This document shows positions 40,719 to 64,000 of a DNA stretch of 64,000 bases, in pieces. Every line of letters begins with the position of its first letter. Positions within the stretch are counted from its first letter, which is position 1. The notes under the pieces were generated by a model that worked only from the letters and a program-made list of their open reading frames with translations, did not search any database and was not told the origin of the DNA. Source of the stretch: Acidobacteria bacterium OLB17 (GTDB taxonomy: Bacteria; Acidobacteriota; Blastocatellia; Pyrinomonadales; Pyrinomonadaceae); assembly GCA_001567505.1 (NCBI GenBank), contig LLEU01000012.1:1-64000 (forward strand), written 5' to 3'. The position numbers and the translations under genes are program-made.

Positions 40719-40837
40719 GATTCTTCGAAGATCGTTCTAGGGTGCTAATGTAATTTGTGTAGTTTACAATAAACGGCCTCGAATGGTCAGCTTGCCTGCA
40801 CAAGGTTTTGCGGATCTCCGGGGCGAGAAGCTCTCTG

Positions 40838-42103
40838 ATGACACAAGACACACGGACGCAAAAGGACGCCGGCGGATCCGACAAATTCCTCACAAAACCC
40901 ATCCTGATCATTTTCCTGACGGTCGTTGTCGATCTTATCGGATTCGGGATCGTGATCCCCGTCCTGCCGTACTATGTCGATAGCGAGCTTTTTAACGGGA
41001 CGCCTTTCGACTATGGGATGATAGTCGCTTCGTATTCGATAATGCAGTTCTTTTTCGCCCCCATCTTTGGGGCCGTTTCAGATCGATACGGCAGAAGGCT
41101 GATCTTGTTCGTGAGCCTACTCGGCACAGCGGTCGGATTCGTGACCGTCGGCCTTGCGACCACGCTTTGGATGGTCTATGCCGGCCGCATCCTCGACGGC
41201 ATCACCGGCGGCAACATCTCGACCGCACAGGCCTATATCGCCGATGTCACTTCACGGGAGAATCGCGCACGCGGAATGGGCCTGATCGGTGCCGCGTTCG
41301 GTATCGGATTCGTACTCGGGCCCGCACTCGGCGGGATCCTTTCCACATTCGGGCCGCACGTGCCGTTCCTCTTTGCCGCAGGTATGGCTTTGGTAAATGC
41401 CTGGCAGTTTACTTTTTCCTGCCCGAATCGCTCGACCTCGCAAAGGCTCGAAGCCAGCCACGCGAGCTCAATCGGTTCGCCGTGATCTTCCAGTCGCTGA
41501 AGGATGTGAGTTTTCGCGGCATCACGATCATCTATTTCCTTATTACGGTAGGCTTTACGGTGATGACGACCGCCTTTGTGCTCTACACCGAGGAGCGATT
41601 CGGTTACGACGCGCATGCGAACGGCTGGCTCTTCTTGTTCATCGGAGCTCTCGCCGTCGGGCTGCAAGGCGGAGTGTTCGCTCGATTGTCCAAGCAGTTC
41701 GGCGAACCGAACCTTACTATCGCCGGCACGGTCCTCTTGACGCTCAGCCTGTTCGCCGTCCCTTTTGTCGGCCCGGCATCGGGCGCTGGCGGCACTGCTC
41801 ATCGGCATCACGTTCTTTTCGATCGGGAACTCGATCGCGTCGCCCGCACTCACGAGCCTTGCTTCCAAGAACGCTCCCGAACACGAACAAGGCAAAGCGC
41901 TCGGCATTATGCAGTCGGGTGCGAGCCTTGCAAGGGCGATCGCACCGGTCGCGGCCGGCTTCTTACTCAATAATGCGGTTGGTGAGGTCGATGATCTAAC
42001 GATCGAGAGGACTTTCTGGACGGCGTCGGCGATAATGCTCGTCGCCTTCTTTACGGCGATCTACTACCTTGTGCGAAGGGCTGACGACGTGCTCGCTAGC
42101 TGA
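40838..42103 (+). CDS. MFS transporter (TetA/Bcr-like drug efflux), two frameshifts
   Basis: A twelve-helix transporter spread over three frames. Frame 1 has the MFS motifs VVVDLIGFGIVIPVLPYY and GAVSDRYGRRLILFVSLLG (motif A) and DGITGGNISTAQAYIADVTS. One missing base near 41400 is needed to continue as LAVYFFLPESLDLAKARSQP, and one extra G near 41780-41784 must be removed to continue as ALAALLIGITFFSIGNSIAS and ASLARAIAPVAAGFLLNNAV. The start at 40838 (MTQDTRTQKD) is chosen; the frame is also open to 40808. The motif set resembles tetracycline/multidrug exporters; the substrate is unknown. Confidence 0.85.
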
Positions 42104-51520: not shown

Positions 51521-51607
51521 GCCGGAGTGGCGAAATTGGTATACGCACCAGACTCAAAATCTGGCGAGGGCAACTTCATGTCGGTTCGAGTCCGACCTCC
51601 GGCACCA
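51521..51607 (+). tRNA. tRNA-Leu (anticodon CAA)
   Basis: Class II tRNA with perfect acceptor stem (GCCGGAG / CTCCGGC), anticodon loop ACTCAAAATCT giving CAA, T arm GTCGG TTCGAGT CCGAC and encoded CCA. It marks the border of the integrated element: sequence composition and gene type change directly after its 3' end. The 230 bp between the small zinc protein and this tRNA show no convincing gene. Confidence 0.97.
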
Positions 51608-52342: not shown

Positions 52343-53396
52343 TGGCACGGCGTGGAACTTTTCAGATACCGCAAACTAAGCAATACCCGAAGAATGAATC
52401 GGGATTCGTCCGAGTAAAACAGAACAGCCCGTGTGCCGTTTGTGGTAAGGCAAGCTGGTGCACCCGCTCTGGTGACGGCGTGCTCGCGTATTGTATGCGG
52501 GTAGCGGCTGGCAGTGTTAAGCAGATAGCGAACAAGCATACGTTCACGTTCTAACGGCGAATCCCAGCTATGTTCCGCAGGCTACGGTCGTCAAGCGTTC
52601 CGCTCCGGCGACTGTCACGGCGAGTGCCGACACAAAGGATGAAGTCTATCGTTACCTCTTAACAGAGTGCCTTACATTGGACGCAGATCACGGCGACCAT
52701 TTGTTAACGGAACGAGGATTCAGTGATCCGGCAATCGTCGCTAACCTTTATGCTTCGACTCCGAAAGTCCGAGACCGTGAAGCCGTTAGCAAGCAGTTAG
52801 CCGATAAGTTTGGTGACACGTTGCGAGGTGTTGCTGGTTGCTACATAGACCCTAAGACGCGTGCTTGGCGTTTCCGGTTTCCGCAGTACGGCTTTCTTAT
52901 TCCGTGCCTTAACTCACGTGGTCAGATTGCAGGTTTGATGGTTCGTCGGAATGGTAATGCTGTCCCGAAATACTATTGGGTTTCGACTCCGGCAGACACG
53001 TATGAAGGCGGAGCTTCGTCGGGCACACCGATTCATTTTTCGCAGTCGCATAGGATTAAGACGGTGCGTCAAGTGATAGTGACCGAAGGCATTCTTAAGG
53101 CAGACCGAATCACAGAGTTTCACGACTTGCCTTGCATCGGCATTCCCGGCGTTCACAACTTCAAGGAAACATTTGCCGTTGACCTCAAGCGTATTTTTCC
53201 AGAGATTGAGTTGGCATTGGTTGCATTCGACGCAGACTTTGTTAACAACCCGCACGTGCAGGACGGTCTTTGCAAACTCGTCTTTAATTTGGCTCCGGTC
53301 ATCGAGACACACATCTTGAAATGGAATCTCAGCGACGGCAAAGGGTTGGACGATGTGCTCTTCAACGAGCGGGAGGTCAACGATGAAGAATGTTAG
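52342..53396 (+). CDS. zinc-finger / TOPRIM primase-like protein (DUF3854-like), frameshifted
   Basis: Frame 1 from 52342 carries a primase-type zinc finger (CAVCGKASWC ... GVLAYCMRVAAGSVKQ) and stops at 52554. A second frame, open from about 52535, continues AYVHVLTANPSYVPQ, then DEVYRYLLTECLTLDADHGD and the TOPRIM elements VIVTEGILKADRI (Glu) and LALVAFDADF (DxD), ending at 53396. Restoring one base near 52534-52537 (AAGCAT to AAGGCAT) fuses them into one protein of about 351 residues whose layout, zinc finger then TOPRIM, matches plasmid and satellite primase-like proteins. No initiation codon other than TTG 52677 serves the second half alone. Confidence 0.78.
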
Positions 53397-54516
53397 TGAG
53401 CTGACCGTTGAAGAGTTCAAAGCGACGTTGGCCGTTACGACGGATCCCGGTGATGCAGCACTCGTTGTTGATAAACCCGTTGGTAATAGACCGAGCATCA
53501 TAAGTGCAAAGGAACTTCTTACCAAAGTCTTTCCGAAGCCTAAGTATGCGGTTGACGGTTTGCTACCCGAAGGCGTGACGGTGCTGGTCGGTAAACCAAA
53601 GCTAGGTAAGTCGTGGTTGACCATCGGTATCGCTGTAGCCGTGGCGTCAGGCGGCAAGGCACTAGGCACGATTCCCGTTGATAGGGGCGATGTCCTTTTG
53701 CTTGCCCTAGAAGATGGTGCGCGGCGTTTACAGCACCGTCTTAACGGCGTTCTAAATGGCGGCACGGTTCCAGCGGGTTTGGATGTAGCGACGGAATGGC
53801 GACGTATTGACGACGGCGGTCTTGACGACATTGAGGGGTGGTTGAAAGACCATCCCGAAGCCCGTCTTGTCGTTGTCGATACTCTCAAACGAGTTCGTCC
53901 ACCAGAGCGACCCGGACGCATCTACAACGATGACTATGACGCTATCGCACCGCTCGCTGACTTGGCAAAACAATATGGCGTTGCAATCGTCGTTGTGCAC
54001 CATACGCGAAAGCAAGATAGTGAAGACCCCGTGGACTTGGTATCAGGTTCGACCGGACTCTCTGGAGCCGCCGATGGTGTGTGCGTCCTTAAACGAATGC
54101 GTCTGCAATCGAGTGCTGAGTTGTTGTCATTTGGCCGTGACTTTGAAGAGTCGTCGCTGGCTCTGGAGTGGGACAAGGAAACGCTCCAGTGGAAATGTGT
54201 CGGTGAGGCTGCGGAGTTCAAGATGAGCGTCGAGCGGCGGGCAATTATCGATGTCATTCGCAACAATGGCGGCAAGGCATCACGAAAGGAAATCGCTGAG
54301 GCTCTTGGCAAGGCATCTTCCACCGTTGGCAAGAACCTTTGGGATATGAAACAGGACGGACAAGTTATCTGTGACGAAGCTGGTAACTATCTCGAAGGTG
54401 ATTTGTTCGGTAATGCTGGTAACGCTGGTAACGCTGGTAACGGCGTTACTGGTGTTACCACCGTTAACGGTCTTACCTACGAACAAATGTGGGACGATGA
54501 AAGCCTGCCATTTTAG
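53383..54516 (+). CDS. repA: RepA-like AAA ATPase/helicase of the element
   Basis: A 377-residue hexameric-helicase-type ATPase (AAA_25/RSF1010 RepA-like). Walker A is VLVGKPKLGKSWLTIGIAVA near residue 75, Walker B ARLVVVDTLKRVRPPERPGR near residue 165, followed by AIVVVHHTRKQDSEDPVDLV with the sensor His. A winged-helix segment is at about residue 295 (GGKASRKEIAEALGKASSTV). The tail carries a GNA tripeptide repeat from tandem 9-bp DNA repeats. The ATG at 53383 follows GGGAGG and overlaps the primase-like gene by 14 bp. It would unwind element DNA for replication. Confidence 0.88.
   Translation: MKNVSELTVEEFKATLAVTTDPGDAALVVDKPVGNRPSIISAKELLTKVFPKPKYAVDGLLPEGVTVLVGKPKLGKSWLTIGIAVAVASGGKALGTIPVDRGDVLLLALEDGARRLQHRLNGVLNGGTVPAGLDVATEWRRIDDGGLDDIEGWLKDHPEARLVVVDTLKRVRPPERPGRIYNDDYDAIAPLADLAKQYGVAIVVVHHTRKQDSEDPVDLVSGSTGLSGAADGVCVLKRMRLQSSAELLSFGRDFEESSLALEWDKETLQWKCVGEAAEFKMSVERRAIIDVIRNNGGKASRKEIAEALGKASSTVGKNLWDMKQDGQVICDEAGNYLEGDLFGNAGNAGNAGNGVTGVTTVNGLTYEQMWDDESLPF
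54409..54444 (+). repeat. tandem 9-bp repeats near the 3' end of the RepA-like gene
   Basis: Four head-to-tail units: GGTAATGCT, GGTAACGCT, GGTAACGCT, GGTAACGGC, then an inverted relative GGTGTTACC at 54451-54459. They encode GNAGNAGNAGNG. The arrangement resembles short iterons, but it could be only a coding microsatellite. Confidence 0.6.
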
Positions 54517-54667: not shown

Positions 54668-55747
54668 TTAGGATTCACTGCAGGAACCAGTCAGCAATGC
54701 GACTCCAATTCTCCGGGCCAGCTCCGGCGGGACGGCATTTCCGATAATGCGGGAGATGTCCGAGATACTTTGCGCCTTAAAAACGTAGTCGAGCGGGAAG
54801 GTTTGCAATGTCGCTCCTTCGCGAAGGGATATAGCGCGGTCTTGCTCTGGATGCCCAAACCGGCCGTTCGACAGACTGTAGAAACGGGTTGTTATAGTAG
54901 GCGCGGGCTTATTCCAAAACATTCTGCCGTAAATGTCCTGGAAACCAAACTTCTCATTGCCCTGGTGACGTTTGTAGACTGCCAGTTGCAAGTCAGTATC
55001 TTCCCAACCTTTCCGTGTTCCGCCATCGTGTTCCGTGACCGCTAGCCGCTTGAGATTCGTCTCACTTAGACCAGAAGCAGTGTGACAGAAATCGGTTTCG
55101 TCGCGGGTTCCGGCCTTTATCTTCGGGAATCGCTTTGTGTCGCCGATAAAGTTCTGCACAGTAAGCTCTGAATCAGCTACAGCTTCTGGGAAGCTAACAA
55201 CGTTGACACGGGACGCTATCAGCACAAATCGTCGTCGGGTCTGGGGAACTCCGTACTCGTCGGCTCTGATTGTTTTGTGTACAGACGAATAGCCATTGTC
55301 AGCCAAGAACGTGATGAAATCGGTTAGTGGACTTTCTTTGTTTCCGACTATTCCCGGTACGTTCTCGATTACTACATGCCCAGGCTTAAAGTAGTCAACG
55401 AATTTTCGGAAGTCGCCGAGTAGAGTCTTGGAGTCTTTGGAGCGCGTTTTGTCCGTACGCATGATGCTCCAGTATTGACACGGGCTGCAACCAACGAATA
55501 GTAACTCGTCATCATTCCGTCTAATCTGAATTCTGGTTCCATCCGTGGTTTTGTACCCGGTTTCCAACTTCTCGACGGCGAGCTTTGTTATATCCTCATG
55601 GATGAATTTTGCCGGCTTGTTATTAAATTCGTACGTTTCTCTACAGCGGCCATCCAAGTCGATACCAGCCAGAACTTTGATACCTGCTTTACGCAGGCCA
55701 TATGTCATTCCGCCCCCACCGCAGAAAAAATCAATCGCTCTAATCAT
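54668..55747 (-). CDS. drmMII: C5-cytosine DNA methyltransferase, DISARM-type (DrmMII)
   Basis: A 359-residue m5C methyltransferase. Motif I AIDFFCGGGGMTYGLRKAG, catalytic motif IV LLFVGCSPCQYWS, motif VI VVIENVPGIVG, motif VIII VPQTRRRFVLIAS and the C-terminal motif X RIIGNAVPPELARRIG are all intact, so it should be active. It is the last gene of the minus-strand operon after drmB (62-bp gap), the place drmMII holds in class 2 DISARM, where it marks host DNA as self. Its target motif cannot be read. The 150 bp between its stop and the convergent RepA gene hold C-rich and G-rich runs but no gene. Confidence 0.88.
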   Translation of the reverse strand: MIRAIDFFCGGGGMTYGLRKAGIKVLAGIDLDGRCRETYEFNNKPAKFIHEDITKLAVEKLETGYKTTDGTRIQIRRNDDELLFVGCSPCQYWSIMRTDKTRSKDSKTLLGDFRKFVDYFKPGHVVIENVPGIVGNKESPLTDFITFLADNGYSSVHKTIRADEYGVPQTRRRFVLIASRVNVVSFPEAVADSELTVQNFIGDTKRFPKIKAGTRDETDFCHTASGLSETNLKRLAVTEHDGGTRKGWEDTDLQLAVYKRHQGNEKFGFQDIYGRMFWNKPAPTITTRFYSLSNGRFGHPEQDRAISLREGATLQTFPLDYVFKAQSISDISRIIGNAVPPELARRIGVALLTGSCSES

Positions 55748-55809
55748 GTTTATCTTAAGAGATATCTAACCAATTATTTATCTGGCGCTCAAATCAATCG
55801 GTAATTCAA

Positions 55810-57671
55810 TCAACCATAGGCCTGCAAATACGCTGAGAAAAATCCCAAGCCTGGCCTTTCCGGCGTGCCGACGACTAAAACACGGTCAAGAAGTTTGTTG
55901 CCCTTTTCACAGGCTGTCTCAGGAAGCAACGCACAACCATGGCAAGCAGCAAAATTACAAGAACCGGGCCCTTGACCCGTACTTTCCAAACAAACAGGGT
56001 CTGACGAACACCAAAGCGCATTCTTGAGGGCTCTAATAATCACGTTCTCGAAGTTACCCCGTAGACCTTGGCGAACAAGGCCTCCCATAGTGCCTTCGGA
56101 GTCCCCTGACGCGGTATATATCAGAACGCCGGTCATCGGAAACCCGGGTTTCTCGATGTTGCAATACAGTCGCTCACGAAGACTGGAACTTCCGTAGCCA
56201 CAGTCAAAACTGAATTGATTAATCAAGAGATGCGCCAGCGTGTGCAACAGGACGAACTTGGGCGGGATATTCGCTTGAATATCGGTACCGCGGGACAGGG
56301 CCGCGCTATGATAATTCCGTGACAGCTTGCTCGTACGCTCGATAACGCCTTCATCTCTCTCCCACGCCGCCACTTTGTCGTCATCAAGCGTGAAAAAAAT
56401 CCCCTCTCCACTAACAGTTACAGCTGGGAGCCAGTCAATTTCCGAGTCCAGTTTTAATAGGTTTATCTTTTCCTTTTGATTTGGGTTGTCCTCAGGTTTT
56501 ACTCGCGAAAAACCAACGAATGCCCTGGTTTCGCGCAATTGGTCGGCCAGTGTGATGTTTGAGATATATTCCCGCACCGGAGACTGATAGTCCTCGGCCC
56601 TCATGATGCGCGTTGAAAGCGCGGATTCGGTATTGCCTCGTCCTTCGAGCAACGCGGAGAATTCGTCCTGGCGAAACTCTTCCTCACTTGTTGAATCGTG
56701 CTCGGCCAGCAGGTTTTCACCCTGTAGTTTTCGTCGGGCGAAGTCGACAAATTGCGCGGGGTCTAAATCTCTATCTTCCGCCATTATCCGGCAACGATAT
56801 TCGTCCAGTTCGCCGTCGACGGTCGCGCTTTTGATTTTGGCCCACAATCGCCCATCCTCTAGAACATTGATGACGTCCTTGGATGCATCCTCAGCCCAAA
56901 GCGGGAGATAGATGGAACTGACAATTATTGGAAAGAAGACGTTGGAACCACCCTTCTGCAAAACCGACAATTCAATGCCGCATTGGGTCGAGTCGTGTTT
57001 AACATTGCCTAGCCAAGGCCGCTGTCCTCCACAAACAATTCCCGCTCGACCTAAAGACCCATTCGCAAATGAGCCAGCCATACTTCGCCGCTTTTTGCAG
57101 CTGCACTCAATGAATAACCCGGCCAGACTGGCACTGCTTCCGGTCCCGAATCGGAGCTTACATTCGTCCGTGAAGGGAGAATCGCCGTGCACCCATTCCA
57201 GCCAAGGAAAATCTCTTATATGCCCTTTTTCGCAAGCGGCAACGAACCTAAGTGGAACAAGGAATCTCCGCTTAGTCTGAGCCACTGAGCTGCAGGAGGT
57301 ACCTTTCTCAAAGTCCCTTCCAGAACACCTCTGTTGCGAACCGTAGAGCGAAAGTTTCTCCATGCTGCCGCACCGTTGGCAGAAGTGCCACTCAGGAAAG
57401 CGAAGTGTTGGGATGGTGAACTTTGGATTGACAACGCCAGGTTTTGCTTCACGGAAATCCGGTGGCAATCGGAATTCTGAAACCCCAAGGCGCCGTTGTA
57501 ACCTAGCTCGGTAATGACAAACTCGGCCCGCTGGACATCCGATGACGGATAGACCCATGCATCCAGACCGCAGACGATAAGGGACTCCCCTTGGGGGAAG
57601 TCAATCATAGCTCCAACGCCCCAAGGTGAAACCAGCTGTGACTGTCTAATTGGCTTGTTTAGATAACTCAT
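55810..57671 (-). CDS. drmB: DISARM protein DrmB (DUF1998), frameshifted near the N-terminus
   Basis: About 620 residues when repaired. From ATG 57671 (overlapping the drmA stop as TAATG) the first frame reads NKPIRQSQLVSPWGVGAMID, the DrmB N-terminal signature, to VQRAEFVITE. The rest is in another frame: QRRLGVSEFRLPPDFREAKP, zinc-type cysteines (HFCQRCGS; CEKGHIRDFPWLEWVHG), and the DUF1998 core LLHTLAHLLINQFSFDCGYG with SSLRERLYC, finishing with CHGCALLPETACEKGNKLLD. One G missing at about 57504-57512 (GAGGCT to GAGCT) explains the break. DrmB forms the core complex with DrmA. Confidence 0.85.
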
Positions 57672-60600
57672 TAGGTGATAGTCGTTACGCTCGCGTCGTC
57701 CAAGCATTGCGGTTCCGGGTAGTTTTTAAGAGTTGTCGCTTGACAAGTACGGTCAACCGAACGCATCGAACTCGGTGTAGCGATTGCGCGGCCTCCCCAT
57801 TCTGGCAAAGGGAAGGAGCCAGCCGGATACATGAGCGGAGCAGAGGCATCGGGACTGCCGAAGCCCCCGTACTTAGACGGCATAATTCTCGACCAGTCAT
57901 CAAAGAACGCACGGGCTTCTGTTAGCACCTCATCGATTTCATCTGGGTCTATATCGCTTACCCGACTGCGCACGGTATCAAGAGCTTTATCTATTAACTC
58001 TTCCGCAGGGAACGGGTTGGGTGTTTCACTGTTCTGCTGAGTTCCCAGAATCCTTATCATCGCCACGAGAATCGCATGCAGGGCACGTTTGCGAACCGGT
58101 ATAGCCCACGGTGTAACACTTGTCGGCTCTACTTGTTTATAGAGCGTCCCGTGATAAGTGCTAAAGTGCTCGTAATGCGACCGGTCGCGCGGCTTTCCTG
58201 TGTTATAAATCGTCACGACTAATCCGGGAGCCCGTGGGTCACGTCCGACGCGACTGGTTGCTTGAATGTATTCCGAAGTCGTCTTCGGTTGTCCGATGAC
58301 GCACATCAGGCCAAGTCTTGGCACGTCTACGCCTACCGAAATCATATTTGTGGCAAGACAGATATCGACGGGATACACGTTTTCACCCGTACCGAATTTC
58401 CTCTCCAAGGACTGCAACGCCTCTGTTATCTCCGCGCTGTCGATACGACTTGTTAGCTCCAGATATTTGTTTATATAGCGCCTGCTTTCCCTTGCTATCT
58501 GCTTCTTATTCCAGACGGTCGTCTTCATGTACTCAGGAATATCCGCATGAATAAGTGTTGCGGCGTGCCCAAGTTCTCTCAAATTGTTGAAATAGCACAG
58601 TAGGGTGTAATATGGGTCGCGCAGAACCTCTTCGTCAACGTTAGCAACGAGTGCCGCCTGCAATAGCGCGGAAAAAACTCGAACCTGTGTTGTAACATGC
58701 GACGAAAGAGCAGACGCATGAACCCCAACATACGTCCGACCACTGACATTAAGGTCTTCCGTCGCGAAGAACGATTCTCCGGCCTTCAAGGCTTGAGGCG
58801 GGAACTGAAAGACCGGACGATTGAATAATGAGGTTACTTGGTCGACAGCCCGCCGAATGGTTGCAGTCGATGCAACTATCTTCGCAGGATACGTCATCCC
58901 ACCCACCCGCTGGACGCAGAATTCCTCAATGACGGTTTCGAACAGACCAACCATTGAACCTAAGGGCCCGGAGATTAGGTGAAGCTCATCTTGAACAATC
59001 AGTTCGGGTGGCGAGTGGTGGGTGCCGCCCTTCCCGAAGAGATTTTTAGTTTCGGGCTTCCAGACAATCATCGCGAACTTGTCGACTGTGCCGATAACCA
59101 GCGACGGTGTCTTTTCGTAAATGTCTTCATCGATGACGTATAGAGGTAGCGGGAACGACCGGGCGCTGAAGTCGCAAGCCGTGTCTGGACACACAAGATG
59201 AACCGAAGAGGGCGTGCCGTAGTTCAGATAGCCTTTGACTCCGGCATCGCGCGTAGGGCCCATTTGGGCGGAGCACCACGGACATCGCAATAAAACAAAG
59301 GGATTATTTTTCTCTTCGCCCTTAATGAGTTTGTTGAGCGATGAAACGGCATCGGAACGACTATTGGGCGTAAGCTCGCCACCAACCCAGAGGCCGATAG
59401 ATATGCGCTCTTCACCTAACCTGTCTGCATTCTCATTTCGGATTTTTTCACAAGCACATATCAGCGACGCGGCACGTTGAAATTGTTGCGCGGTAAGAAG
59501 GCGAAGCGTATACCGCATCAATACGACCACTCCAGCGTCATCACGGTTCCTCAATCTACGCAAAAAGATAGTTAAAGCGGTTAAGCCCAAGTAAGCTTCC
59601 GTTTTTCCGCCGCCCGTGGGGAACCAGATTAAATCCGCGATGTTCCTATCCTCATCCCCGGCGTCAGCAAGGCCCGCTATGTTCATAAGGATGAAACCTA
59701 ACTGAAACGGATACCACTTGCCCTTCCTCTCATCCGGATTGAGAATGTCCGGAAATGCTACCGGAGGTAGCGATGCGCTCGTTCCATTATTCTTTACCCA
59801 CTCGCGCAGGGGAAGGGCGAAGTGGAGCTGCTGAGAGAGCATGGCCCGATTCATCAATCGGAACGCGAGCATGGCGGAATCGTTTGTCGCCAAAACGTTC
59901 ACGCCTTTGGTCATTCGGGCAAGGCACTGGCGACAAGTTTCCAAGTGCATCTTCGCGGCACCTTGTAACGGCTCAGCAAGCTCAAGAGCCTCACGTTCCT
60001 GTTCATCAATCCATGCTGAATACTTCTCACATAGCCTGTTCAGTATCTCTAACTGCTTGGAATCGTGTGCCACATCGCTCAGAGCAAGCATCGACAATGA
60101 CAAGTCGGGTAGGATATTTGGAACGATAGGTTTTACGTCGTATGTCGGTAAGACTGCGGTCGATATCTCAGTAGCGCGCTCACCGGATTCCGTCCATTCC
60201 GCTGCACAACCGTGTCCTACCGCGAAGGTCTTTTTTTCCCGATATAAGAGCCTAAGTGCAAGCTCCTCATCGTCTAAGCTCTCTCCCCGCTTTTCTGGGT
60301 ATTCGATGAAGCATCGCTCGTCGTCTGGACTCGTAACCCTAAAACCGGATTGGAAGAAGCACTTTTCGGTGACGAATCTCTCACTTTGCGTCGAATGCTT
60401 GTTGATTAGGGATATCGTAATTAGGCGCCACTCGGCCTCTCCGACAACACGCTCCGGTCGACTCAGAATGAACAGTTCAAGCCCAGTCTCTTCGCCAGAT
60501 TCGGTCGACACCGGATAACGCAATGTTCTGGCACCTACGCCCCTGAGCTCTTCGGCTTCTATGTTCCGGCGGCCGGAAATCGCGCTACGGAGAAAGCGGC

Positions 60601-61039
60601 GTTTTTCTCGCCCGTCCTCTATGCTACTTTCCGTTCTGTACTTTCCAGCTTCTACGTCGACCACGAGGGCATTGGTTGAAATCTCTGCCAAAAAGCTGAC
60701 ACCCATGGCCGAAGGCTTAAAAGCGTTAGCTAGGCCTATCGCTTCCTCAGTTGTATCGTCGATTGAGAAGTCAACGTGGCCACAGGCTGTCTTTTGAGGT
60801 TCAGGTAGGGCGGTCGTATCAATACTGTCTTCGACTTGGGAGTCGTCCGGTGCTTCATCAGAATCCTCACGCTCAGATTCTTTGTTTGGTGTCTGACGCG
60901 GGAACAACACGCCTACACCATAGCGGACGGTAGGCGAATCATTCTCTAAAATCTCTTCCCCGTTCGCCTGCACCAAGGGCGGAATAGGGTCGGGCCCAAC
61001 CAGTTCTTTGCTAAGGAAGTCAATTATTTGGTCTCTCAT
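57671..61039 (-). CDS. drmA: DISARM helicase DrmA
   Basis: A protein of about 1122 residues of the DrmA helicase family. Walker A LIWFPTGGGKTEAYLGLTAL is near residue 477, a zinc ribbon (CPWCSAQM ... CPDTACDF) is inserted near 585-625, motif II is QDELHLISGPLG near 685, and motif VI QATSRVGRDPRAPGLVVTIY near 960, preceded by SVGVDVPRLGLMCVIGQPKT. The N-terminal ~450 residues are the DrmA-specific region. It starts at ATG 61039 (a GTG precedes it) 22 bp after the NERD-helicase gene and overlaps drmB. With DrmB it senses and threads incoming phage DNA. Confidence 0.9.
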   Translation of the reverse strand: MRDQIIDFLSKELVGPDPIPPLVQANGEEILENDSPTVRYGVGVLFPRQTPNKESEREDSDEAPDDSQVEDSIDTTALPEPQKTACGHVDFSIDDTTEEAIGLANAFKPSAMGVSFLAEISTNALVVDVEAGKYRTESSIEDGREKRRFLRSAISGRRNIEAEELRGVGARTLRYPVSTESGEETGLELFILSRPERVVGEAEWRLITISLINKHSTQSERFVTEKCFFQSGFRVTSPDDERCFIEYPEKRGESLDDEELALRLLYREKKTFAVGHGCAAEWTESGERATEISTAVLPTYDVKPIVPNILPDLSLSMLALSDVAHDSKQLEILNRLCEKYSAWIDEQEREALELAEPLQGAAKMHLETCRQCLARMTKGVNVLATNDSAMLAFRLMNRAMLSQQLHFALPLREWVKNNGTSASLPPVAFPDILNPDERKGKWYPFQLGFILMNIAGLADAGDEDRNIADLIWFPTGGGKTEAYLGLTALTIFLRRLRNRDDAGVVVLMRYTLRLLTAQQFQRAASLICACEKIRNENADRLGEERISIGLWVGGELTPNSRSDAVSSLNKLIKGEEKNNPFVLLRCPWCSAQMGPTRDAGVKGYLNYGTPSSVHLVCPDTACDFSARSFPLPLYVIDEDIYEKTPSLVIGTVDKFAMIVWKPETKNLFGKGGTHHSPPELIVQDELHLISGPLGSMVGLFETVIEEFCVQRVGGMTYPAKIVASTATIRRAVDQVTSLFNRPVFQFPPQALKAGESFFATEDLNVSGRTYVGVHASALSSHVTTQVRVFSALLQAALVANVDEEVLRDPYYTLLCYFNNLRELGHAATLIHADIPEYMKTTVWNKKQIARESRRYINKYLELTSRIDSAEITEALQSLERKFGTGENVYPVDICLATNMISVGVDVPRLGLMCVIGQPKTTSEYIQATSRVGRDPRAPGLVVTIYNTGKPRDRSHYEHFSTYHGTLYKQVEPTSVTPWAIPVRKRALHAILVAMIRILGTQQNSETPNPFPAEELIDKALDTVRSRVSDIDPDEIDEVLTEARAFFDDWSRIMPSKYGGFGSPDASAPLMYPAGSFPLPEWGGRAIATPSSMRSVDRTCQATTLKNYPEPQCLDDASVTTIT

Positions 61040-61060
61040 CACGAACGGATAAATATTTTG

Positions 61061-62839
61061 TTATGACCGGCTGGTGCTAAGCCTTGTGCTAACCAGCGAT
61101 TGGTATTGTTCCCGCAACATCTCAGGAATAACCATATAAAGGCGTTGTCTCGCCCGTGACATGCCTACGTATAGGAGCGAACGGGCCGATTCGCCGGAAA
61201 GGTCGTCAAAGTCTGTCAAGATGATAATCGAATTTTCAAGTCCCTTAAACGAGTGGATTGTGGCAAATGTTAAAACGTCTTTTGGCGGACGAGTGAAGAA
61301 TGAGTCTGACACCGCTTCAATCTCTAGGTTCGTCGTTTCATTCAATCGAACCAGGCACCCTTTCTCGGCCGCCTTGCACGATAATATGGTGATGTTTTGC
61401 AGCGAAATGCCGTCCCCGACTAACCGAGTGAGCAAGTTGTTCAGCCGCCGAGCTTGGTCTTCAGCGTCGGAGTAGAATTGATAGTCAACTGGTAGACCGT
61501 CCATTGTGGTCAGGTGGAAAGGCGGTTTCTCAAAGCCCGATAGAACAGATGTCTCTTCACCGATATTACGAGTATTTCGACAATTGCGGGTTAACTTGCA
61601 CAGGGTGAAATGTGGAGACCTCCGAGAGAGTTCGTCCAGCATTTCGTCTTTTGAACCAGAAGAGTAAATGGCCTGACGATTGAAGTCTGCAAACATCGCC
61701 CATTGCCCGCCGTTTAATCCGCCCCGCAGTATTTCGTCAAAGAAGTCTAGATTATCTGCCGTAATCAAGTCCTGAGCCTCATCGATTATCAAAGTATCGA
61801 AGGGTTGGAAGTCCGGATTATCTCGCACGGCCATCGAACCATAACAGGGAAATAGTTCGTCGTAAAGAACTTCATTTGAGACTCCAGCTTGGCAACTCGC
61901 GAACTCCTCATTCCATGCCGATGACACGACGGCATCCCGGATGAACTGATGCAGATTACCAGCAAAACCAACGGAATCAGCCAACGCAGCTCTGATTTGT
62001 TTACCTAACAACTTGTTAAAGCAAAAAATGCCCACCCTCTTTCCATCCGCAGCCATTCTCCGGGCGAACTCTAGTGCAATCATCGTCTTGCCCGTGCCCG
62101 CACCGCCCTCAAAAAGACAACGGGCGTTTTGCTCCAAGGAATCTAACCGCTCATATTGTTCTTCGGTTAGTGACAACAGCTCTTGCTCGGCATCCTGAAG
62201 TTCGACCGACGGCGGCGGAATGATTTCGAAGTTTCCGCGAAGTAAACAGACAAGGTCAGTAACGTCCTTTTCAGTGGGTCTGCTTTCAGTCGCATTATAC
62301 CATTGGGTTGTAGAAACTTGACGATGCGCTCCGCGGGAGAGCCGTAGAATATATTCCGAAATTGGCCGCTTCCGGTCTCTTAAGTCATATACTTCCCAAC
62401 GTTCGAACTCTGGGTCACTCGCCGTGAACTCAATATCGGGAAACATCACACCATAGCGATAGACGAGATTATATAAACGGTTTTGGGAACCAAGACGCGC
62501 TCGAACAGCCTCTAGAAGACTAAACATCCCCTCTCTTGCCTGCGAAAAAGGACTAACCGCCTTACTACTCTTCTCTCCGTGTCGGTTGGTGAATGTCCAG
62601 ACGCCGTCCTCACGTTGAACCCGTCCGCCTTTCACCTCCAAACAGAAAACACCATGACCGGGAGCCAACACGACAAAGTCAATCTCACCAAACTGGCGCT
62701 TGATATGTCGTGAGAGTCCAAGGGAGTGAAGGACAACATACTCCGCAGCGTGCGGGTCATGCTTAAAGAAATCAAATACTTTTCGTTCTGCCCGACTCCT
62801 GATGTCCGAAGAGACATAGGGGGGAATCATGCGTGCCAT
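61061..62839 (-). CDS. NERD nuclease domain / UvrD-type helicase inside the DISARM operon
   Basis: A 592-residue fusion. The NERD (PD-(D/E)xK) domain has QFGEIDFVVLAPGHGVFCLE followed by VKGG, giving the D...ExK active site near residues 53-70. The SF1 helicase part has Walker A FEGGAGTGKTMIALEFARRM near 245, motif II TLIIDEAQDLITADNL near 352, motif V ATIHSFKGLENSIIILTDF near 530 and motif VI LLYVGMSRARQRLYMVIP. Both activities look intact. It is not part of the canonical DISARM set yet sits between the drmE-like gene (gap of 2 bp) and drmA. It may supply the nuclease function otherwise given by DrmC. Confidence 0.9.
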   Translation of the reverse strand: MARMIPPYVSSDIRSRAERKVFDFFKHDPHAAEYVVLHSLGLSRHIKRQFGEIDFVVLAPGHGVFCLEVKGGRVQREDGVWTFTNRHGEKSSKAVSPFSQAREGMFSLLEAVRARLGSQNRLYNLVYRYGVMFPDIEFTASDPEFERWEVYDLRDRKRPISEYILRLSRGAHRQVSTTQWYNATESRPTEKDVTDLVCLLRGNFEIIPPPSVELQDAEQELLSLTEEQYERLDSLEQNARCLFEGGAGTGKTMIALEFARRMAADGKRVGIFCFNKLLGKQIRAALADSVGFAGNLHQFIRDAVVSSAWNEEFASCQAGVSNEVLYDELFPCYGSMAVRDNPDFQPFDTLIIDEAQDLITADNLDFFDEILRGGLNGGQWAMFADFNRQAIYSSGSKDEMLDELSRRSPHFTLCKLTRNCRNTRNIGEETSVLSGFEKPPFHLTTMDGLPVDYQFYSDAEDQARRLNNLLTRLVGDGISLQNITILSCKAAEKGCLVRLNETTNLEIEAVSDSFFTRPPKDVLTFATIHSFKGLENSIIILTDFDDLSGESARSLLYVGMSRARQRLYMVIPEMLREQYQSLVSTRLSTSRS

Positions 62840-62842
62840 TGA

Positions 62843-64000
62843 TTACCTCTCTCGCAGGAGTCGATTAACCTTGTGTCCTGCAACTTGCGACACCGCACTG
62901 TCGATGCTTTCTACACAAACGATGAAGACATTCCCAAGCCCCGTGACCTTAATAACACCGTCCGTTTCAGACAAGTCCTGCAAATCACCCTTTATCCGTT
63001 TATCGAGTAGCCGGGCCACCTGTTTTGAGGCCTGTATGTGAGCCCCTCTAACTTGGCTGACGGCTTGTACGACAGTTTCACAGGTTTCCATCAGTTCATC
63101 GTCTCCAGCGGCCTCCGCAATCGCGAGTATGTCAGTGTCGTCCCCTGGAGCAATCTGATTATCATCCTGCAACCAGTTTTTAATAGTGAGCTCATTGCGG
63201 TCACATCCAAATCCACTCAAAACGGCCTTGACTCTCGAAAGCGACCTCCCGTTCTTTTCAAACACTGTCGTAAGAGCGGAGCGCCATCGTGTAGCAATTT
63301 CTCTCAGCTGCGCATTTCCACTCCGTTCGAGCCCCAAGTCAGCCAGTTCTCGGATAATATTCCGCGACGAACTTTCACGGAACAAGAGGAAATCACCGAT
63401 GGAGATATCCTTAATTTTCCGTTGTGGAAGTTTGTCAGCCTTCGCTCCCGCCGACATGAGTTCATTGATGACTGGAACTGAGTGCCGCTCAGTGAGAAAT
63501 GCGTAACCACCTTGATTAAACATCACACAGCGTGCGTTGACCTTGTTTGCAGAGGCTTCGTCGTCCAGGCCCCTGAGAATCCTCAGCCTCTTAAGTTCAT
63601 GAAGTCTTATTTCAAAATCTTCGAGTGCGTTTTGTTGGGGGCTCTCTTCGGCAGAACGACCATCGCTCGCGACCGCCGATTGTCGCTTCCCGAAAACCGA
63701 AGGATTTCGAAAATCTTCACTGTCGAAGGAACCGAAGAACTTCCTCTTTGTCGAACTCGTCCATTCCTTTTCGTGTGTGTAATTGAGCACAACAACGCGT
63801 GAACCAAGCGACTTGTCGAAGACACGCAGCATTTGGTTCCCCCTTAAATAGCCACACAGCAGGACGCAGTCATACTCATCGCTTCCTTTGAATGTGCTAC
63901 TTTTTTCGAAAACGACGGAGCTTCTCGGAAATTTTTGGGCAATGGTATCCCGCTCCATCTCGAAGTCCGACTTGTTAAGCACAACACAGATACTTTTGTT
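62843..64000 (-). CDS. drmE: DrmE-like DISARM protein, C-terminal part (cut by window end)
   Basis: The frame is open through the right edge; the first internal start is GTG at 63982 but codons upstream continue a beta-strand (SICVVLNKSDFE), so the N-terminus is outside. The visible ~385 residues have no enzymatic motif. They include YDCVLLCGYLRGNQMLRVFD, VVVLNYTHEKEW, QRKIKDISIGDFLLFRESSS and a helical C-terminus. Position at the head of drmA-drmB-drmMII and the KDI.IGDFLLFRE segment suggest DrmE, the class 2 DISARM protein of unknown function. This is partly inference from context. Confidence 0.6.
   Translation of the reverse strand, partial: NKSICVVLNKSDFEMERDTIAQKFPRSSVVFEKSSTFKGSDEYDCVLLCGYLRGNQMLRVFDKSLGSRVVVLNYTHEKEWTSSTKRKFFGSFDSEDFRNPSVFGKRQSAVASDGRSAEESPQQNALEDFEIRLHELKRLRILRGLDDEASANKVNARCVMFNQGGYAFLTERHSVPVINELMSAGAKADKLPQRKIKDISIGDFLLFRESSSRNIIRELADLGLERSGNAQLREIATRWRSALTTVFEKNGRSLSRVKAVLSGFGCDRNELTIKNWLQDDNQIAPGDDTDILAIAEAAGDDELMETCETVVQAVSQVRGAHIQASKQVARLLDKRIKGDLQDLSETDGVIKVTGLGNVFIVCVESIDSAVSQVAGHKVNRLLRER

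What the first reader, a model, noticed from the sequence alone, without database searches (positions are those of the whole stretch)
54668..64000. Variant class 2 DISARM with a NERD-UvrD nuclease-helicase and no visible drmC
The minus-strand operon reads drmE-like, NERD-UvrD, drmA, drmB, drmMII with overlaps or tiny gaps (TAATG, 2 bp, 22 bp, 62 bp). Canonical class 2 DISARM is drmE, drmA, drmB, drmC (phospholipase-D-type), drmMII. Here drmC is absent from its usual place and a protein with both a PD-(D/E)xK nuclease and an SF1 helicase is built in upstream of drmA. Tight coupling suggests it is a working component, possibly replacing DrmC, which would make a DISARM subtype with two helicases and a different effector nuclease.
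Basis: partly seen in the sequence, partly recalled or inferred. Interest (0 to 1): 0.85.

Follow-up and report, generated by a model that had tools for sequence, protein, structure and literature searches.

The report
DISARM variant with NERD-UvrD, without DrmC
This is an anti-phage gene cluster of the DISARM kind in which the usual DrmC nuclease is missing and a fused nuclease-helicase sits in the operon instead; the same arrangement recurs in at least 15 other loci in five bacterial phyla, so it is a real branch of DISARM and not a quirk of one genome.

Summary
The minus-strand operon reads DrmE-family, NERD-UvrD, drmA, drmB, C5-methyltransferase. The contig beyond 64000 holds the rest of drmE, vsr and an integrase, but no drmC. 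No PLD nuclease passes Pfam's cut-off in this ~90%-complete genome. The cluster is cargo of a 16.0-kb element flanked by a 56-bp repeat of a tRNA-Leu gene.

DrmE, NERD-UvrD, DrmA, DrmB recurs, usually with a C5-methyltransferase nearby, in at least 15 other loci in five phyla (three of these end after NERD-UvrD or span a record end). NERD and helicase motifs are intact in all 16. NERD-UvrD and DrmA distances correlate (r=0.79, 0/5000 permutations). drmC was found in 0 of 23 NERD-containing and 15 of 30 other DrmA loci. NERD and drmC lie on different DrmA branches, so 'replacement' is inference.

It is not canonical class 2: DrmC is absent, and DrmE belongs to NCBI's DrmE_fam (30 bits against a 250-bit cut-off for DISARM DrmE). 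drmB and drmE each carry an apparent 1-base frameshift here; housekeeping genes in this contig do too, so assembly error is likely.

Verdict: new, conserved DISARM variant. NERD-UvrD as effector is probable but untested.

The parts
62843..64000 (-). drmE-family gene, C-terminal part (ORF continues to 64474; N-terminal part 64384-65388 lies outside the window)
   Evidence: NCBIfam DrmE_fam NF038316: C ORF covers profile 296-838 (242.6 bits, cut-off 80), N ORF covers 25-295 (79.4 bits); Pfam DrmE_C 39.6 bits; frame change near A6 run
61061..62839 (-). NERD-UvrD: N-terminal NERD (PD-(D/E)xK) nuclease domain fused to SF1 UvrD-like helicase, 592 aa
   Evidence: Pfam NERD 45.5 bits at 15-120 and UvrD_C_2 35.9 bits; motifs E18, E52, D54, E68-x-K70, GAGTGKT, DEAQD, R562 invariant; predicted fold, pLDDT 79, matches UvrD at Z 30.5
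57671..61042 (-). drmA, YprA-type SF2 helicase, 1123 aa
   Evidence: NCBIfam DISARM DrmA NF038325 983 bits, cut-off 950; PADLOC DrmA 2e-228
55810..57671 (-). drmB, DUF1998/MZB protein, with an apparent single-base frameshift at about 57505
   Evidence: NCBIfam DrmB_fam NF038324 429 bits; tblastn of four relatives changes frame between 57549 and 57504
54668..55747 (-). C5-cytosine DNA methyltransferase (DrmMII-like)
   Evidence: Pfam DNA_methylase 165.7 bits; PADLOC MTase_II 264.7 bits, DrmMII 204.4 bits
51552..51607 (+). attL of the 16.0-kb integrative element, inside the 3' end of tRNA-Leu(CAA); attR is at 67548-67603
   Evidence: 56-bp perfect direct repeat, tRNA at 51521-51607
53353..54516 (+). 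AAA_25 (RepA/KaiC-like) ATPase of the element
   Evidence: Pfam AAA_25 104 bits
52677..53396 (+). DUF3854 (TOPRIM/primase-like) gene of the element
   Evidence: Pfam DUF3854 30.6 bits

Best explanation
The locus is a conserved DISARM variant, drmE-family / NERD-UvrD / drmA / drmB plus a C5 methyltransferase, carried here on a 16-kb integrative element at a tRNA-Leu gene. Proposed working: the methyltransferase marks host DNA; DrmA-DrmB loads on invading DNA through exposed single-stranded ends and translocates (inferred from the solved DrmAB of another DISARM); the NERD-UvrD protein, made in fixed proportion from the same transcript, is recruited to or fed by DrmAB, unwinds the DNA with its SF1 motor and cuts it with its NERD domain. 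It thus takes the effector role usually given to DrmC. Shown here: gene content, order, conservation, intact catalytic motifs, lack of drmC, shared ancestry of NERD-UvrD and DrmA. Inferred: recruitment, polarity, cleavage, and the effector role.
For: Same order in 15 other loci from Acidobacteriota, Actinomycetota, Deinococcota, Bacillota and Pseudomonadota; three of them (L028, L143, L019) end after NERD-UvrD or continue across a record's start. Overlaps or gaps of a few bases between genes in most. NERD and SF1 catalytic residues identical in all 16 (one E for Q356). Distance matrices of NERD-UvrD and DrmA correlate, r 0.79, and with DrmB 0.82, 0 of 5000 permutations as high. All 16 fall in one supported NERD-UvrD branch of 33 rows, 100/100. 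drmC in 0 of 23 NERD loci and 15 of 30 others; no DrmC or HKD motif in the element; no DrmC profile hit and no PLDc_2 above cut-off in the genome. DrmAB structure and proposal that it recruits a nuclease: PMC9142583.
Against: No function tested. Homologues of NERD-UvrD also stand in other contexts, so the protein is not bound to DISARM. Some relatives of this DrmA branch have neither NERD nor drmC (L130, L131), so the nuclease may be optional. drmB and drmE are frame-shifted in this assembly. The mutual exclusion follows DrmA phylogeny and the loci were not drawn evenly.
Confidence: 0.65

Rival explanations
1. NERD-UvrD is an accessory or back-up nuclease. DrmAB with DrmE blocks phage by itself and NERD-UvrD adds a second layer, as proposed for the NERD domain of PglW in type 2 BREX.
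For: DrmC itself is reported as dispensable and often missing (PMC9142583); relatives L130 and L131 keep DrmE and DrmAB without NERD; NERD of PglW read as back-up effector (PMC12839542).
Against: NERD-UvrD is present in 13 of 15 members of this DrmA branch, always inside the operon between drmE and drmA, with invariant catalytic residues.
Confidence: 0.2
2. NERD-UvrD is an independent defence gene (Nhi/AbiO- or DRT-helicase-like) that happens to lie in the same defence island.
For: Best PADLOC profile is RTasNERD-Hel, 150.5 bits, with weaker Nhi and AbiO matches; many homologues have no DrmA beside them.
Against: Fixed position between drmE and drmA, overlapping genes, five phyla, correlated trees.
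Confidence: 0.07
3. The copy in this genome is a decaying, inactive DISARM: drmB and drmE are broken.
For: Frame changes in drmB at about 57505 and drmE at 64414-64419.
Against: The same contig shows frame breaks in iscS and an MFS transporter, which points to base-calling or assembly indels; all other motifs are intact; drmE break is at a homopolymer. The conclusion about the system does not depend on this copy.
Confidence: 0.25
4. Ordinary class 2 DISARM whose drmC acts in trans from elsewhere in the genome.
For: PMC9142583 suggests DrmAB may use PLD nucleases of the host.
Against: No DrmC hit and no PLDc_2 over cut-off (best E 0.37) in this genome; same for G353; DrmE is not the class 2 equivalog.
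Confidence: 0.04

Closest known systems
DISARM class 2 (drmE, drmA, drmB, drmC, drmMII)
   Same: DrmA, DrmB, a DrmE relative and a C5 methyltransferase, in one operon
   Different: No DrmC; DrmE is NCBIfam DrmE_fam, not the DISARM DrmE equivalog; extra NERD-UvrD gene between drmE and drmA
DISARM class 1 (drmD, drmMI, drmA, drmB, drmC)
   Same: DrmA and DrmB as separate genes; a second helicase in the operon
   Different: No DrmD, no PglX-type methyltransferase, no DrmC
DRT-associated NERD-helicase (PADLOC RTasNERD-Hel)
   Same: Full-length homologue of the NERD-UvrD protein (150.5 bits over 1-569)
   Different: No reverse transcriptase gene in this locus
Nhi / AbiO nuclease-helicases
   Same: Nuclease plus SF1 helicase architecture; helicase-region match
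   Different: Stand-alone genes, only local sequence similarity (34-37 bits)
ARMADA type II (GajB-like UvrD with RelE domain beside a YprA helicase) and TALON (NERD nuclease beside a YprA helicase)
   Same: A YprA-family helicase paired with a UvrD-type or a NERD-type partner
   Different: Those YprA helicases keep the DUF1998 part fused and belong to another branch (PMC12458937); here DrmA and DrmB are separate and match DISARM models

Membership tests
DISARM (general) | DrmA helicase of DISARM type | tested here: met
   NF038325 983 bits against cut-off 950
DISARM (general) | DrmB (DUF1998) as separate gene beside drmA | tested here: met
   NF038324 429 bits against 240; TAATG overlap
DISARM class 2 | DrmE, DISARM equivalog | tested here: not met
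   NF038323 30.4 bits against 250; instead DrmE_fam NF038316 242.6 bits
DISARM class 2 | DrmC PLD nuclease (required in PADLOC type II, PMC9252829) | tested here: not met
   No DrmC profile hit in operon, element or genome; genome about 90% complete
DISARM class 2 | DrmMII C5 methyltransferase | tested here: inconclusive
   DrmMII 204 bits but generic MTase_II 265 bits
DISARM class 1 | DrmD and DrmMI | tested here: not met
   No such gene in the 16-kb element
NERD nuclease, PD-(D/E)xK | Conserved catalytic residues of the fold | tested here: met
   E18, E52, D54, E68, K70 identical in 16 of 16 operons
DRT with NERD-helicase | Reverse transcriptase beside it | tested here: not met
   No reverse transcriptase among the genes of the element scanned with PADLOC and Pfam
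TALON | TPR-CSD and TBP genes with ARMADA-type YprA | tested here: not met
   Neither found in Pfam scans of the element's main genes; DrmA matches DISARM model
Anti-phage activity | Protection in a plaque assay | not testable with these tools
   Needs experiment

The most novel reading that the evidence does not exclude
A third class of DISARM: a branch of DrmAB that has worked since before its spread over five phyla with a NERD-UvrD nuclease-helicase as its dedicated effector in place of DrmC, with its own DrmE family.
Probability: 0.55. Interest if true: 0.68.

Novelty: new variant of a known kind. Interest (0 to 1): 0.6.

Why it matters
How DISARM destroys phage DNA is open, since DrmC is dispensable and often missing. 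A conserved branch that lacks DrmC but always keeps a nuclease-helicase with an intact active site gives a direct test: change the NERD residues and see whether protection is lost. PADLOC's DISARM type II definition requires DrmC, and its DrmE profiles miss even full-length members of this DrmE family, so these systems may go uncounted. NERD-UvrD beside DrmAB also parallels other pairings of YprA helicases with UvrD-type or NERD partners (ARMADA, TALON).

Tried and rejected
Rejected: drmC just past the window. Rejected: uniqueness to this genome. Considered a genuine two-gene split of drmE here: in L012, L019, L020, L021, L028, L030, L096 the split is real (4-10 bp overlaps), and L095 and L097 also have two ORFs, but in this genome the two pieces meet at profile 295/296 with a 91-bp overlap and an A6 run at the junction, and nearest relatives in the NERD-UvrD tree (L143-L145, L099) have a fused DrmE, so a frame break in one gene is more likely. 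Led nowhere: DrmE_C structure (pLDDT 55, not searched); empty-site check in sister genomes with the right-flank gene (no match); PADLOC DrmE search in Bacillota (none); no reference canonical class 2 operon was obtained, so its place in the DrmA tree is unknown; Ofir 2018 is not held. A viral-contig scan and a phage search gave only partial or distant relatives, 38% identity at most. Literature: no held paper links DISARM with a NERD-UvrD gene; most subscription papers are not held. Loci in the NERD/drmC table were gathered by two different searches, so its Fisher p (3e-5) is descriptive; the Acidobacteriota DrmA search alone, tallied by hand, gives 0/6 against 13/20 (p 0.015), also not corrected for phylogeny. 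L032, L135 and L125 are scored NERD-less in that table by the distance rule or record ends; they lack drmC, so the exclusion is unaffected.

Full report
What is there. The window is the first 64 kb of a 104-kb contig. The minus-strand operon reads drmE-family (62843 to about 65388), NERD-UvrD (61061-62839), drmA (57671-61042), drmB (55810-57671) and a C5 methyltransferase (54668-55747). Profiles identify DrmA (NF038325, 983 bits, above its 950 cut-off), DrmB (NF038324, 429 bits) and a DrmE family protein (NF038316), the NERD and UvrD domains and the methyltransferase. Past 64000 come vsr (65475-65897), an integrase (66310-67404) and attR; there is no drmC.

The element. A 56-bp perfect repeat of the 3' end of tRNA-Leu(CAA), at 51552-51607 and 67548-67603, bounds 16.0 kb of lower G+C (50% against 56-58% in the flanks). 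With the integrase this marks an integrative element with an AAA_25 ATPase and a DUF3854 gene; DISARM is its cargo. An empty site was not shown.

Frame breaks. drmB changes frame at about 57505: four relatives align in one frame upstream and another downstream. drmE changes frame near an A6 run at 64414-64419; the two ORFs cover DrmE_fam positions 25-295 and 296-838. The same contig has broken iscS (Aminotran_5 1-206 and 245-370 in two ORFs) and a broken MFS transporter. Indels in the assembly are the simplest reading; real mutation is not excluded.

Recurrence. In 396 Acidobacteriota genomes 8 have a NERD-UvrD relative at E 1e-20, in 296 Actinomycetota 35 at 1e-40, in 299 Pseudomonadota 2 and in 299 Bacillota 20 at 1e-60; counts include the genome at the centre of each search. 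Reading the neighbourhoods gives DrmE, NERD-UvrD, DrmA, DrmB in L012 (Rhodococcus opacus pROB02), L019 with L135 (two ends of a circular Deinococcus psychrotolerans plasmid), L020, L021, L030, L095, L096, L097 (same locus as L031), L099, L142, L144, L145, L146, and up to a contig end in L028 and L143. Most have a C5 methyltransferase within the stretch; none has drmC. A C5 methyltransferase was not seen in L021. Two further NERD plus DrmAB layouts exist: NERD-UvrD, DrmA, DrmB, a small SF1 helicase and a ~530-aa protein (L013, L022, L024, L025, L119; NERD last in L032; partial in L104), and UvrD, DrmA, DrmB, NERD-UvrD (L016, L103, L148, L175).

NERD-UvrD protein. The PD-(D/E)xK residues (E18, E52, D54, E68, K70) and SF1 motifs are the same in all 16 operons apart from one E for Q356. 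The predicted structure (pLDDT 79) matches UvrD in its helicase half (Z 30.5, 349 residues, 3.3 A). In the NERD-UvrD tree all 16 DrmE-type operons fall in one branch of 33 rows (100/100); the label needs 4 changes against 14.6 in shuffles. Distances correlate with DrmA (r 0.79) and DrmB (0.82), 0 of 5000 permutations as high, against 0.90 for DrmA with DrmB.

NERD and drmC. A DrmC profile from nine operons whose DrmC was confirmed by PADLOC hits 15 of 30 NERD-less and 0 of 23 NERD-bearing DrmA loci. In the DrmA tree the window lies in a fully supported branch of 15 rows, 13 with NERD, 2 with neither, within a larger branch of 26 rows (99) that has no drmC; most drmC loci form another branch of 13 (94). 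The pattern fits one old difference better than many swaps. A weak PLD-like ORF (17 bits) lies 2 kb from the operon in L145.

Mechanism. DrmAB is known to load on DNA with 5' single-stranded ends and to be damped by methylation, and to need some nuclease, DrmC being dispensable (PMC9142583). A related YprA-family effector, DruE, couples such a helicase to a nuclease (PMC13192584). By analogy the NERD-UvrD protein is the likely nuclease here. That step is inference.

Known or new. PADLOC's type II needs DrmC and DrmE (PMC9252829); its DrmE profiles do not hit L144 or L099 DrmE that NCBI's DrmE_fam covers end to end. The YprA survey (PMC12458937) mentions many uncharacterised DISARM-like classes, NERD only in TALON, and UvrD in ARMADA. 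No held paper describes this combination. I therefore call it a new variant of DISARM; NCBI's separate DrmE_fam shows that the DrmE part had been noticed.

Noticed in passing
window 51552-51607 and 67548-67603 (L002 5548-5603): 16.0-kb integrative element at tRNA-Leu(CAA) with integrase, AAA_25 ATPase, DUF3854 gene, vsr and DISARM as cargo.
   Followed up: partly
window 40808-42103; L002 10066-11351: Frame breaks in an MFS transporter and in a cysteine desulfurase: the assembly has indels in housekeeping genes.
   Followed up: partly
window 61061-62839 (model of NERD-UvrD): Predicted NERD-UvrD aligns over its whole length (1-573) with residues 404-899 of human Schlafen 11 and 401-909 of Schlafen 14 (Z about 29, rmsd about 8, so domains shift); Pfam SLFN-g3_helicase also passes its cut-off. 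The Schlafen linker may be NERD-like; not examined further.
   Followed up: no
L021 1780-4253: McrB-like AAA_5 and McrC genes just upstream of the NERD-DISARM operon in a sister genome of the same genus.
   Followed up: no
L013, L022, L024, L025, L119, L074, L075, L087, L134: A second DrmAB layout with a small SF1 helicase and a ~530-aa protein of no known family, with or without NERD-UvrD in front.
   Followed up: partly
L014, L018, L161: NERD-UvrD relatives directly behind very large proteins of 1870-2090 aa (in L018 annotated DEAD/DEAH helicase), possibly another defence system.
   Followed up: no
L030 5457-7592: An AIPR abortive-infection protein lies directly upstream of the operon in the Pseudohongiella genome.
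   Followed up: no
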